Shown here: one piece after another, positions 24,701 to 44,624 of the stretch
How the letters are laid out: every line of letters starts with the position of its first letter
How positions within the stretch are numbered: the first letter of the stretch is position 1
From: Trichothermofontia sichuanensis B231
GTDB lineage: Bacteria; Cyanobacteriota; Cyanobacteriia; B231
Assembly (NCBI RefSeq): GCF_026240635.1
Contig: NZ_CP110848.1
Span: 1,490,501 to 1,554,500 of the forward strand
Direction: 5' to 3'
Length of the DNA: 64,000 nt
Program-made: the position numbers and the translations under genes
Notes under the pieces: model-generated
What the model was told of the DNA's origin: nothing
Seen by the model: only the letters and a program-made list of their open reading frames with translations
Database searches by the model: none

Positions 24701-25054
24701 GTTAAGGATTTAATTAATCTGGGTTTCAAGATCGTGGCCACCGAGGGCACCCGGCAAGCCTTAAAGGAACAGGGCATCCAGGTTGAGCTAATGCTCAAAC
24801 TCCACGAGGGCCGTCCCAACATTATTGATGCGATTAAGAACCACACGATTCAGTTGATTATCAATACCCCCATTGGGGCCACCGCCCAGGAAGACGATCG
24901 CGAAATTCGGCGATCGGCGCTGGCCTATAAAATCCCCATGATTACCACGATCGCTGGAGCCAAGGCAACCGCAGCCGCAATCCAGTCCCTACAATCCCAT
25001 CCCCTCACAGTGAAGGCATTACAGGACTATATTGCAGACTATATTGCCGGTTAA
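21731..25054 (+). CDS. carB: Carbamoyl-phosphate synthase large subunit CarB
   Basis: Makes carbamoyl phosphate from bicarbonate, ammonia delivered by CarA, and two ATP, for pyrimidine and arginine synthesis. 1107 residues from ATG 21731 ([21 protein letters not shown]); upstream TTG 21695 is less likely. Two homologous ATP-grasp halves are plain: [19 protein letters not shown] near residue 14 and [19 protein letters not shown] near residue 585. Each is followed by FTLGGTGGG / YVLGGRAME phosphate loops and [10 protein letters not shown] / EANPRASRT metal sites. The C-terminal allosteric MGS-like domain starts near residue 970 ([12 protein letters not shown]). carA is not in the window. A palindromic hairpin lies 12 bp after the stop. 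Confidence 0.98.
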
Positions 25055-25065
25055 GTAGCTTTCCT

Positions 25066-25106
25066 GAGTTTAGGGTGGGGGTGCTACGCGCTCCTACCCT
25101 AAACTC
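25066..25106. repeat. Family-3 long palindrome after carB
   Basis: An 11-bp perfect outer stem GAGTTTAGGGT/ACCCTAAACTC continues with partial pairing to a loop around CTACGCG. A closely related perfect palindrome lies after psaC (44164-44208) and a decayed one after the HNH gene. It may protect or terminate the carB transcript; there is no U-run. Confidence 0.8.
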
Positions 25107-25128
25107 GGCGCTTTAGATCATTGATTGG

Positions 25129-25235
25129 TATAGTCATTACAATTTAGGCTGAAACAGCCCCCTCACCCCCAGCCCCTCTCCCAGAGCGGGAGAGGCGAGC
25201 GAAGGACTGTATCGTTCTTATTTGGATTGACTATA
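25129..25235 (+). repeat. Family-1 MITE-like repeat, copy 4
   Basis: Full-length copy of 107 bp from TATAGTCATTACAATTTAGG to TTTGGATTGACTATA, with the internal CTCTCCCAGAGCGGGAGAG hairpin. Confidence 0.88.
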
Positions 25236-25354
25236 GCTGCTTATACTGTTTACACGAAAATCTGATTACACTAAACGCTCAGAAGTGTCGGTTAAGTTGA
25301 GATGCCTAATTCAAATTTATTTATTCCGAAAAATGCCTAGGCTCTCAATCAATG

Positions 25355-25392
25355 CCTTAACTGTGTACTGAGTAAATTAGGTAAAGGCTGTA
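25355..25392 (+). repeat. Family-2 MITE-like repeat, right-end fragment
   Basis: CCTTAACTGTGTACTGAGTA...AGGTAAAGGCTGTA matches the right end of copies A and B. The left end is not recognisable upstream. Confidence 0.7.
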
Positions 25393-25419
25393 AGCGAGTG
25401 CTCTTGCCACGATCTAACC

Positions 25420-25450
25420 TGAAAAAAGACCCGGTGTTAACCGGGTGTCT
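25420..25450 (-). terminator. Rho-independent terminator on the minus strand
   Basis: Read on the minus strand, an ACCCGG/CCGGGT stem with loop TTAACA (extended by flanking bases) is followed by six T's. It implies a minus-strand transcript from the right, i.e. from the small gene at 25657-25866 or from an RNA gene in 25450-25656. Confidence 0.75.
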
Positions 25451-25656
25451 CTGTTCTCTCCTGACTCACTGACTGACAGGAGAAAATCGGTTAGGACGTG
25501 GAGGAAGCCAGGGGTGTAGGGTTCTGTTCCCCGTTCGCATTGCGTCGCCGCTGGAGAGCCGTCCTATTATGGGATGGGTGGATTCCGACCTGAGTTGGCG
25601 GCCCCGCAGCCCCTAGGTGAAGGTGTATAGCGTTTGCGTATACCTAGCGCGATCGT

Positions 25657-25866
25657 TCAAAATAAAGGCAGGACAACCACTATCGGTTCATTTGTTGGTT
25701 GGGCTTCAGGGATCACAACCGGCGCAGGAGTAGGGATAGATTTGCCAGGGGCGGGCAGGCGGGGAGTCTCTTTCTGCTGCGCTGGGTTCGGTTGAGGATT
25801 TGGGTTAGCAGAGAGGGATTGGCACGGAGATGTGCTCACAAAATAACCAAAAACGAGGGTTTCCAT
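25657..25866 (-). CDS. Small unknown protein, Pro-rich, 69 residues
   Basis: I do not recognise the family. The ATG at 25866 is preceded six bases upstream by AGGAG, a strong Shine-Dalgarno site, and a rho-independent terminator on the same strand lies about 210 bp downstream. Both support a real gene. The peptide starts METLVFGYFVSTSP, has a Pro/Asn/Gln-rich middle, and ends in a hydrophobic IVVVLPLF tail. There is no membrane helix. It is divergent from pbpC. The untranslated stretch 25450-25656 has hairpins (for example GGTGTATAGCG/CGTATACC near 25621-25644) and might be a structured 3' region or a separate RNA. Confidence 0.55.
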   Translation of the reverse strand: METLVFGYFVSTSPCQSLSANPNPQPNPAQQKETPRLPAPGKSIPTPAPVVIPEAQPTNEPIVVVLPLF

Positions 25867-25927
25867 AGAGTCTCCTGGGGTAGCTGCACTTGATGTTTTC
25901 AGTATTGCTGACGGCCATCCGGATCAG

Positions 25928-28588
25928 TTGCCGGGTGGGTTCACTTTCGTAAGAGTCCTGATCGATCGCACCCCAATCGGTAGTTTTCAGAGGTTTCGCA
26001 GGGTTCCCCTAGGGACAGTTGCACAAGTGGCTAGATGGTTTCTTCCTGCTTTGAAGGCGATCATCACCGATCGCAGCTTTCAATTTACCCAATGGGTCAA
26101 ATCCTGGCCACGTTGGGTAGGGTTTGGCCTAGGGGGCATCGTGCTGAGCGGGGTGGGGGTGCGCTATACCCCGTACCTGATGCCGATCCGGGCTAGCGAT
26201 ATCGTCCAAGAGCACTCGGCATGGGTCTTGAGCGATCGCAATGGTCTACCCCTGGGAACGATCCTCAGTCGCGATCAGGAGCACACGATGGGGGTTGCCC
26301 TCGATCAGGTTTCGCCCCAGTTTATTCAGGCAATTCTGGCCGCCGAAGATAGTCGTTTTTACCAGCACGGGCCGGTGGATCTGGCTGCTTTGGCACGGGC
26401 GATCGTACAGGCGATTCAGGCACGGCGGATTGTCAGTGGGGCCTCAACCGTTACGATGCAACTGGCCCGTATGATCTACCCGACGCCGCGTACGCCCGTG
26501 GGTAAACTCCAGGAGATCTGGATTGCGTGGCGCCTGGCGGCGGGGATGAGCCGGGATGAAATTTTGCACGCCTACATCAACCGGCTGCCAATGGGGGGCA
26601 ATGTATATGGTGTGGAAGCGGCTGCCCGTTTGTACCTGGATTTACCGGCTGCCCATCTGAACTTGGCCCAGGCCAGTTTGTTGGCGGCTCTGCCCAATGA
26701 TCCCACTGCCCTGAATCCCTACGTTTATTGGGCGCAACTGAAGCAACGGCAACGCTATGTCCTCGATCGCCTGGTGGCCACGGGGAGAATTACCGCCACT
26801 GAGGCTGATCACGCTTACGCCGAAACCATCCATCTTCAGGATCGGCAACAGGGCATCCTGGCCGCCCCCCATTTCCTCTTTTGGGTTGCCAATCAGGTGG
26901 AGCAGAGTCCCGGACAGGCAACCGGGGTGATTCGCACGACGCTCGATCGCCCCTTGCAAGAATTTGTGGAAACTCAGGTTCGTCAATTGGTCCAGGGGTT
27001 AGCACTCCAGAATGTGCGCCATGCGGCGGCGATCGTGGTCGATAACCACACGGGGGATATCCTGGCCTATGTGGGGTCACCGAACTATTTTGATACGGAT
27101 GATCTGGGACGCAATGATGGGGTGCAGGCGCTACGGCAACCGGGATCAACGCTGAAGCCGTTTTTATATCAACTGGCGCTGGCACGGGGTGTCATTAGCC
27201 CCAATACTGTCCTGGCGGATGTTCCTACCCATTACGCCATTCCCGGTGCCCAACTCTATAGTCCGACTGACTACAGTGAAACGTTTCAAGGACCGGTGCG
27301 GGTGCGATCGGCGTTGGCGAATTCCCTTAATATTCCGGCGGTGCGGGTATTGGAGCGGGTGGGAGTGGCGGCTTTTCGCGATCGCTTGCGGGAGTTGGGG
27401 TTTGAGCATTTGACGCGATCGCCGGAGTATTACGGGCTGGGGTTGGCCCTGGGGGCGGGGGAGGTGAGTCTGTGGGAGTTGGCGCGGGCCTATGTCACGC
27501 TGGCGCGGGGGGGGGAGGCGATCGCGCTGCGGGGGTGGCTGGGGGAGGCGCCGTTGAAAATGGGCTTCACCACCAAGGCACCAAGGCACGAAGGGGCACG
27601 AAGGGAGGAGGGGGCCTGGGAATTGGTGCGGGATATGTTGGGCGATCGCTATGCGCGGGCGGGGGCGTTTGGGGTAGCGTCGGTGTTGGATTTGCCGTTT
27701 GCGGCGGCGGTCAAGACGGGGACTTCCTCGGATTTTCGGGATACGTGGACGGTGGGATTCAGCCGGGATTACACTGTGGCGACCTGGGTGGGGAATTTTG
27801 ATGGGTCGGCCATGCGGACGGTATCGGGGGTGACGGGAGCTGCGCCCCTCTGGCAGCGGATTATGTTGCACTTGCATGAGCACCAGGAACCGGCTGGCTT
27901 TGCACCACCTACAGGGTTAGTGCCGCGACCTATTTGTGCCATTTCTGGGGCACGACCAACACCTGCTTGCCCGATCGTGGTCAGGGAATATCTTTTCCCC
28001 ACTGATTTAGCCGCCTATGAGCATCAACCCGATCCTTTCCTGAAACCGATTCCTGGTCAGCCCGATCGCTATCACTGGGTCCTTTCCCCCGAATACCACG
28101 AATGGCTGGCCCAACGGGAAGTCCCCGCTTGGCTCCAGACAACCGTCACCATCGCTCATGAAAACCGCCGGGTAGACATCCCACCGGCCAATCCTAACCC
28201 TATCGATCTGAGCCAAACTACCCAAACCCGCCAGTCAGCGATTGGGGTCCCCAAAATTGCTTTTCCCCAGACGGGCGATCGCTTTATCCTGCATCCCGCT
28301 GAAAACGATTCCCCAGCAGCAATGCAACACGGCCCCAGCCAACGCTTGGAATTTACCCTCACCACCCAGCCAGATACCGAGGTGGAATGGTGGCTCAATG
28401 GGCAAAAATTGGCCACCCAACCGGGACGCTCGTACTTTTGGACGGTGCAACCGGGCCACTGGACACTAACCGTAAAATCTGCCGCTCCCCCCCATAGCCG
28501 CGCTCCCTGGGAAGACACCGTTACCTTTCAAGTCGATGTTGCAAATATACAACATCAGAAACGAGGTTTTACAATTCGCGATCGTTAG
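25928..28588 (+). CDS. pbpC: Penicillin-binding protein 1C (bifunctional glycosyltransferase/transpeptidase)
   Basis: Polymerises and cross-links peptidoglycan at the outer face of the membrane. 886 residues from TTG 25928; GTG 26027 is an alternative start, so the N-terminus is uncertain. A membrane anchor lies near residues 58-76. GT51 domain: AAEDSRFYQHGPVD and SGASTVTMQLARM. Transpeptidase: STLK in RQPGSTLKPF (about residue 407), SLN in ALANSLNIP, and KTG in AVKTGTSSDF (about 596). A BiPBP_C-type domain closes the protein (PKIAFPQTGDRF...). Between SLN and KTG, 27566-27612 encodes a repeat-derived insertion (FTTKAPRHEGARREEG). The BiPBP_C domain and overall order favour PBP1C over PBP1A. 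Confidence 0.93.
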   Translation: MPGGFTFVRVLIDRTPIGSFQRFRRVPLGTVAQVARWFLPALKAIITDRSFQFTQWVKSWPRWVGFGLGGIVLSGVGVRYTPYLMPIRASDIVQEHSAWVLSDRNGLPLGTILSRDQEHTMGVALDQVSPQFIQAILAAEDSRFYQHGPVDLAALARAIVQAIQARRIVSGASTVTMQLARMIYPTPRTPVGKLQEIWIAWRLAAGMSRDEILHAYINRLPMGGNVYGVEAAARLYLDLPAAHLNLAQASLLAALPNDPTALNPYVYWAQLKQRQRYVLDRLVATGRITATEADHAYAETIHLQDRQQGILAAPHFLFWVANQVEQSPGQATGVIRTTLDRPLQEFVETQVRQLVQGLALQNVRHAAAIVVDNHTGDILAYVGSPNYFDTDDLGRNDGVQALRQPGSTLKPFLYQLALARGVISPNTVLADVPTHYAIPGAQLYSPTDYSETFQGPVRVRSALANSLNIPAVRVLERVGVAAFRDRLRELGFEHLTRSPEYYGLGLALGAGEVSLWELARAYVTLARGGEAIALRGWLGEAPLKMGFTTKAPRHEGARREEGAWELVRDMLGDRYARAGAFGVASVLDLPFAAAVKTGTSSDFRDTWTVGFSRDYTVATWVGNFDGSAMRTVSGVTGAAPLWQRIMLHLHEHQEPAGFAPPTGLVPRPICAISGARPTPACPIVVREYLFPTDLAAYEHQPDPFLKPIPGQPDRYHWVLSPEYHEWLAQREVPAWLQTTVTIAHENRRVDIPPANPNPIDLSQTTQTRQSAIGVPKIAFPQTGDRFILHPAENDSPAAMQHGPSQRLEFTLTTQPDTEVEWWLNGQKLATQPGRSYFWTVQPGHWTLTVKSAAPPHSRAPWEDTVTFQVDVANIQHQKRGFTIRDR
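27566..27612. repeat. In-frame interspersed repeat in pbpC
   Basis: TTCACCACCAAGGCACCAAG and GCACGAAGGGGCACGAAG are degenerate units of the CACGAAGG-type short repeat often seen between cyanobacterial genes. Here they code for about 16 basic residues between the SLN and KTG motifs. Confidence 0.7.
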
Positions 28589-44163: not shown

Positions 44164-44208
44164 CTGAGTTTATGGTGGGGGCGCGTAGCGCCCCCACCAT
44201 AAACTCAG
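44164..44208. repeat. Family-3 perfect 45-bp palindrome
   Basis: A 21-bp arm starting CTGAGTTTATGGTGGGGGCG, a three-base GTA loop and the exact complement. It lies 99 bp downstream of the psaC stop, beyond the psaC terminator. Relatives follow carB (25066-25106) and the HNH gene (48471-48508). Confidence 0.9.
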
Positions 44209-44240: not shown

Positions 44241-44263
44241 AAAAAAGGAGGCCACTGACCTCC
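44241..44263 (-). terminator. Rho-independent terminator of psaC
   Basis: On the minus strand, GGAGGTC-AGT-GGCCTCC (7-bp stem, 3-base loop) is followed by six T's, 44 bp after the psaC stop codon. A textbook intrinsic terminator. Confidence 0.88.

Positions 44264-44306: not shown

Positions 44307-44624
<318 letters not shown>

What the first reader, a model, noticed from the sequence alone, without database searches (positions are those of the whole stretch)
25420..25925. Small minus-strand gene or RNA between carB and pbpC
A 69-residue frame has AGGAG six bases before its ATG (25866), and a strong intrinsic terminator on the same strand at 25420-25450. The 200-bp tail between them folds well and may itself be a regulatory RNA. 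I recognise no family.
Basis: partly seen in the sequence, partly recalled or inferred. Interest (0 to 1): 0.55.

Follow-up and report, generated by a model that had tools for sequence, protein, structure and literature searches.

The report
Candidate small gene with real terminator
Between two ordinary genes of a hot-spring cyanobacterium lies a likely short transcript on the opposite strand, ended by a genuine-looking stop signal, but neither its possible 69-residue peptide nor its RNA has any detectable relative, so it is an unproven and fairly ordinary small-gene candidate.

Summary
The window is from Trichothermofontia sichuanensis B231 (genome length identical to the published 4,436,989 bp). 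The observation mostly holds. A 69-aa ATG frame (25866-25657, minus) follows AGGAG, and a strong intrinsic terminator (25446-25429, minus) lies 211 nt beyond its stop codon. The terminator is the best-supported part: 7 of its class occur in 464 kb of this genome, against 0, 2, 0 and 1 in shuffles. Of the four outside long ORFs, the other three lie 44-69 nt after ORFs, psaC among them. The 200-nt tail does not fold better than shuffles (z about -1.2); only the last 69 nt do (z -3.7).
The frame is weakly supported. Such a length arises in 24% of shuffles, coding score is ambiguous (psaC scores as low), and no relative was found in 387 other same-class genomes, GTDB contigs, viral contigs, Pfam, NCBIfam, PHROGs or PADLOC. 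No same-order genome was offered and the nearest scored carB is only 75% identical, so absence of conservation is a weak test.
Best reading: a lineage-restricted minus-strand transcription unit. Whether it is an mRNA for a proline-rich small protein or a non-coding sRNA is close to even. Ordinary kind, low interest; RNA-seq would decide.

The parts
25657..25866 (-). 69-codon ATG open reading frame, proline-rich (15 P of 69), no known family
   Evidence: coding score -0.063 per codon, 1.5th percentile of gene segments but level with psaC at -0.076
25872..25876 (-). AGGAG, Shine-Dalgarno-like, 5 bases before the ATG
   Evidence: sequence; frequency in genes and in controls
25429..25446 (-). intrinsic terminator hairpin, 7 pairs, followed by CTTTTTT (to about 25422)
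25452..25486 (-). hairpin just before the terminator (TTCTCCTG...CAGGAGAGAA), the first of the tandem pair; end coordinates approximate
   Evidence: fold of 25422-25490, z -3.65
25447..25656 (-). region between stop codon and terminator; 3' untranslated region or body of an sRNA; holds a 24-codon frame (25540-25466) and a -10-like CATAAT at 25571

Best explanation
A short minus-strand transcription unit, known only from this lineage, lies between carB and pbpC. RNA polymerase would start in the spacer it shares divergently with pbpC (about 25870-26010), and the ribosome would use AGGAG to translate a 69-residue proline-rich peptide. Transcription would stop at the tandem hairpins and U-run at 25486-25422, giving an mRNA of about 450-550 nt with a long 3' untranslated region. 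Shown: frame, AGGAG, terminator above chance, no known family. Inferred: transcription, start site, translation. The peptide's action is unknown; a composition of about one fifth proline, with no signal peptide or membrane span evident by eye, would suit a flexible partner-binding peptide, but that is a guess.
For: Terminator class: 7 observed against a shuffle mean of 0.75 in 464 kb. Of the 4 such terminators not inside ORFs >=100 aa, the other 3 follow same-strand ORFs by 44, 67 and 69 nt, the first being PsaC. AGGAG is about 8 times commoner before long genes than before shadow ORFs. Proline count in frame exceeds stop-free shuffles (15 against mean 10.9, 2.4% reach it). It is 9th of 37 intergenic ATG ORFs of 60-80 aa by coding score; of the top five in that list, four have a Pfam family (NdhL, gas vesicle protein, DUF2949, S21) and the fifth was not scanned.
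Against: No relative of the peptide: 1 of 58 other genomes at E 0.006 and 11 of 387 others at E 0.0015-0.0095, all short matches of 30-43% identity, 6 of these 11 running across stop codons. None in genome contigs or viral contigs. Coding score lies at the 1.5th percentile of gene segments, and 20% of 395 intergenic ORFs score as high. Such a frame arises in 24% of shuffles. Its terminator is 211 nt away, against 44-69 nt for the three controls. No sigma-70-type promoter was found upstream.
Confidence: 0.38

Rival explanations
1. A non-coding small RNA that starts inside the tail (for example just after the -10-like CATAAT at 25571) and ends at the same terminator, about 130-140 nt long, acting by base pairing with mRNAs as other cyanobacterial sRNAs do. 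The 69-codon frame upstream is then chance.
For: The terminator is real by the shuffle test but lies 211 nt from the frame. The last 69 nt fold as tandem hairpins, z -3.65. CATAAT matches the -10 consensus in 5 of 6. The frame's length is expected by chance.
Against: No -35 element (best 2 of 6). 25422-25560 as a whole folds no better than shuffles, z -0.42. No Rfam match and no DNA relative. It leaves AGGAG before the ATG unexplained.
Confidence: 0.37
2. No gene: a chance frame and a chance or relict terminator in a long spacer that also carries dispersed repeats.
For: Frame length (24% of shuffles), no conservation, weak coding score, no promoter by consensus scan; the carB side of the spacer holds two kinds of dispersed repeat.
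Against: Terminators of this class are rare, and the three other intergenic ones follow ORFs at 44-69 nt.
Confidence: 0.2
3. Remnant of a larger decayed gene, or a terminator serving carB from the other side.
For: The spacer is long (873 bases from the carB stop to the TTG of the pbpC ORF). The hairpin is symmetrical and also appears in the plus-strand scan.
Against: No Pfam match in three frames of the spacer. On the plus strand the hairpin is followed by GTCTCTGTTC, not a T run. A 41-bp palindrome at 25066-25106 lies closer behind carB.
Confidence: 0.05

Closest known systems
Cyanobacterial micro-proteins (short proteins under 80 aa, PMC5126843, passages read)
   Same: Length under 80 aa, own short unit in an intergenic spacer, easily missed by annotation
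   Different: Those were backed by transcript maps and for many by a second species; here neither exists
Cyanobacterial intergenic sRNAs ending in a Rho-independent terminator, such as Yfr1 (PMC2190773, passages read)
   Same: Two stem-loops, the second a G+C-rich terminator with a U tail
   Different: No ACUCCUCACAC; the hairpins are separated by a few bases, not 16-20; not conserved

Membership tests
Yfr1 sRNA | ultraconserved ACUCCUCACAC between two stem-loops | tested here: not met
   Three exact copies in the genome, all outside the window span 1490501-1554500; feature taken from PMC2190773
Any Rfam release 15 family | match at gathering score | tested here: not met
   0 matches in the window; only one chance-level match (E 3.8, at 26046-26070, inside the pbpC ORF) at E <= 5 in 25055-26100
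Known protein families (Pfam, NCBIfam, PHROGs, PADLOC) | profile match of the 69-aa peptide | tested here: not met
   0 families at E <= 1 in each
Cyanobacterial micro-protein (general class) | under 80 aa | tested here: met
   69 codons; definition in PMC5126843
Cyanobacterial micro-protein (general class) | lies in an expressed transcriptional unit | not testable with these tools
   no RNA-seq at hand; the one paper found was seen as a listing only
Intrinsically terminated transcription unit | G+C-rich hairpin directly followed by a T run, above chance | tested here: met
Structured regulatory RNA | fold energy below shuffles | tested here: not met
   z -1.21 for the tail and +0.25 for the region; only the last 69 nt pass
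Structured regulatory RNA | covariation of paired bases in relatives | not testable with these tools
   no relative found

The most novel reading that the evidence does not exclude
A dual-function RNA restricted to this cyanobacterial lineage: the 5' half is translated into a new proline-rich small protein and the 3' half, protected by tandem hairpins, is released as a separate regulatory RNA.
Probability: 0.06. Interest if true: 0.4.

Novelty: new member of a known kind. Interest (0 to 1): 0.17.

Why it matters
If real, it is one more lineage-specific small gene or sRNA in a thermophilic cyanobacterium with no order-mate among the genomes offered. That would be useful for annotation but is not surprising. 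The terminator census suggests a practical rule: strong U-tailed hairpins are rare in this genome, so those not behind a known gene are worth checking by RNA-seq.

Tried and rejected
Tested and dropped: Yfr1; Rfam families; a repeated element as origin of the tail (25380-25960 occurs once in the genome; at E <= 10 the only other place listed is a 30-nt match); conservation with pbpC synteny (six loci, L004-L007, L009 and L010, of the eight found: no related peptide or DNA match in the 2.5 kb upstream, only one tblastn match of 20 residues at E 0.35); conservation downstream of carB (nine loci L056-L064, the best carB matches; in six the downstream DNA was read and holds no match by tblastn at E <= 1 or blastn at E <= 0.1; L059, L062 and L064 come from minus-strand matches, were not turned round by my script, and say nothing). 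The 29-nt matches to query 288-316 in one family contain a GCGATCGC-like motif and lie just outside a long frame in a different gene context in the four loci inspected (L020-L022, L027); taken as chance. The coding-score test was inconclusive: psaC, a certain gene, scores lower than the frame. The 24-codon frame 25540-25466 had three weak matches in 58 other genomes (E 0.0025-0.0037), taken as noise. A structured plus-strand leader of pbpC opposite the frame: three overlapping 100-nt plus-strand windows at 25716-25865 gave z -2.3 to -3.2, but the 150 nt as a whole give z -1.72 (10 of 200 shuffles as good) and 25700-26010 gives z +1.00; not pursued. One search left 110 of 388 genomes unscored.

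Full report
Source. The window lies in a genome of 4,436,989 bases in one contig. That is the length published for Trichothermofontia sichuanensis B231 (PMC10172474, passages read). The identification rests on that length alone, but an equal length by chance is very unlikely. No genome of the same order appeared among the relatives offered: all 58 others are 'same class'. In one search the nearest scored carB is only 75% identical in DNA over its full length, with 110 of 388 genomes left unscored.

What is there. carB ends at 25054 on the plus strand (NF003671). A penicillin-binding protein 1C ORF starts at TTG 25928 on the plus strand (TIGR02073); homologues begin further in, so the true start is probably somewhat downstream (inference). 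On the minus strand between them lie AGGAG, a five-base spacer, ATG at 25866, 69 codons to 25657, and a terminator hairpin at 25446-25429 followed by CTTTTTT.

Terminator. With stem >=7 pairs, >=5 G-C pairs and >=6 T of 7, there are 7 such sites in 464,000 bases (window plus 20 stretches of the same genome), against 0, 2, 0 and 1 in four dinucleotide shuffles. With three laxer settings observed and shuffled numbers do not clearly differ (9 against 8, 4, 7, 8; 56 against 62, 49, 58, 52; 19 against 14, 18, 7, 14). Of the 7, three lie inside ORFs of at least 100 aa. The other four include this one, and the remaining three lie 44, 67 and 69 nt downstream of same-strand ORFs of 81, 953 and 529 aa. 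The 81-aa one is PsaC (TIGR03048). The site in the finding is thus very probably a working terminator, but its distance of 211 nt from the frame's stop codon is out of line with those three.

Frame. In shuffles of the 591-nt region, an ATG ORF of at least 69 codons appears on that strand in 23.9% and on either strand in 39.5%. A phase-specific Markov score (231 training genes, 100,605 codons) gives -0.063 per codon in frame, against -0.26 to -0.43 in the other five frames. That is at the 1.5th percentile of 739 gene segments; 20% of 395 intergenic ORFs and 28% of 1062 shadow ORFs score as high. PsaC scores -0.076, so the test cannot decide. AGGAG 4-12 bases before ATG is found in 12 of 138 long genes, 5 of 452 shadow ORFs and 5 of 120 intergenic ORFs, this one included. 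Proline is enriched over stop-free shuffles (15 against 10.9, 2.4% reach it; 1312 shuffles).

Relatives. Peptide: own genome plus 1 of 58 others at E 0.006; own plus 11 of 387 others at E 0.0015-0.0095. All are short matches of 30-43% identity, and 6 of the 11 run across stop codons; I read them as low-complexity noise. None in genome contigs or viral contigs. No profile match. DNA 25380-25960: no match at E <= 0.001 in 58 other genomes, none in plasmids. At E <= 10 in 376 genomes, the best outside matches are 26-29 nt at E 0.002-0.005. With 75% identity in carB as the nearest scored neighbour, a small fast-evolving gene or sRNA would be missed, so these negatives do not refute the gene.

RNA structure. 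Tail 25656-25415: z -1.21, 23 of 200 shuffles as good. Region 25960-25415: z +0.25. Sliding 100-nt windows on the minus strand range from z -1.95 to +1.44. The last 69 nt (25490-25422) give z -3.65, from two tandem hairpins. On the plus strand, three overlapping windows opposite the frame reach z -2.3 to -3.2, but longer stretches do not keep that up (z -1.72; z +1.00). No Rfam family.

Promoter. No sigma-70-type match on the minus strand upstream of the frame. The best loose -10 is CATAAT at 25571, inside the tail, with no -35.

Judgement. A minus-strand transcription unit: about 0.75. mRNA for the 69-aa peptide 0.38, sRNA only 0.37, no product 0.20, other 0.05. These are judgements, not computed values. 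The finding is a reasonable but unproven candidate of an ordinary kind.

Literature. Passages were read in PMC10172474, PMC2190773, PMC5126843 and PMC2662882. All other papers were seen only in search listings. One paper holding both the species name and 'transcriptome' was listed (PMC10775510); I did not open it.

Noticed in passing
window 25128-25234: A 107-bp MITE-like dispersed repeat with imperfect terminal inverted repeats (TATAGTCA...). 51 hits in 464 kb of this genome (partial copies included; 9 in the window) and 40 scored places at E < 1e-37, the query included, of 749 candidates in the whole genome, so perhaps several hundred copies.
   Followed up: partly
window 25066-25106 and 44166-44206: A nearly perfect 41-bp palindrome (GAGTTTATGGTGGGGGCGC...) whose pattern is present 122 times in the genome, control pattern 0. 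Here one copy follows carB and another follows psaC; its role (attenuator, repeat element) is unknown.
   Followed up: partly
window 44307-44552 and 44247-44263: psaC (TIGR03048) with a strong intrinsic terminator 44 nt downstream, used here as a positive control; its coding score is as low as that of the candidate.
   Followed up: yes
window 25716-25865, plus strand: A long imperfect hairpin (stem of about 14 pairs with G-U pairs) on the plus strand opposite the frame, which could lie in a pbpC leader; only weakly above shuffles (z -1.72).
   Followed up: partly
L030 7618-7878: An 86-aa ORF with a high coding score (0.223), AGGAG and no Pfam match: a better unknown small-gene candidate than the one in the finding.
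   Followed up: no
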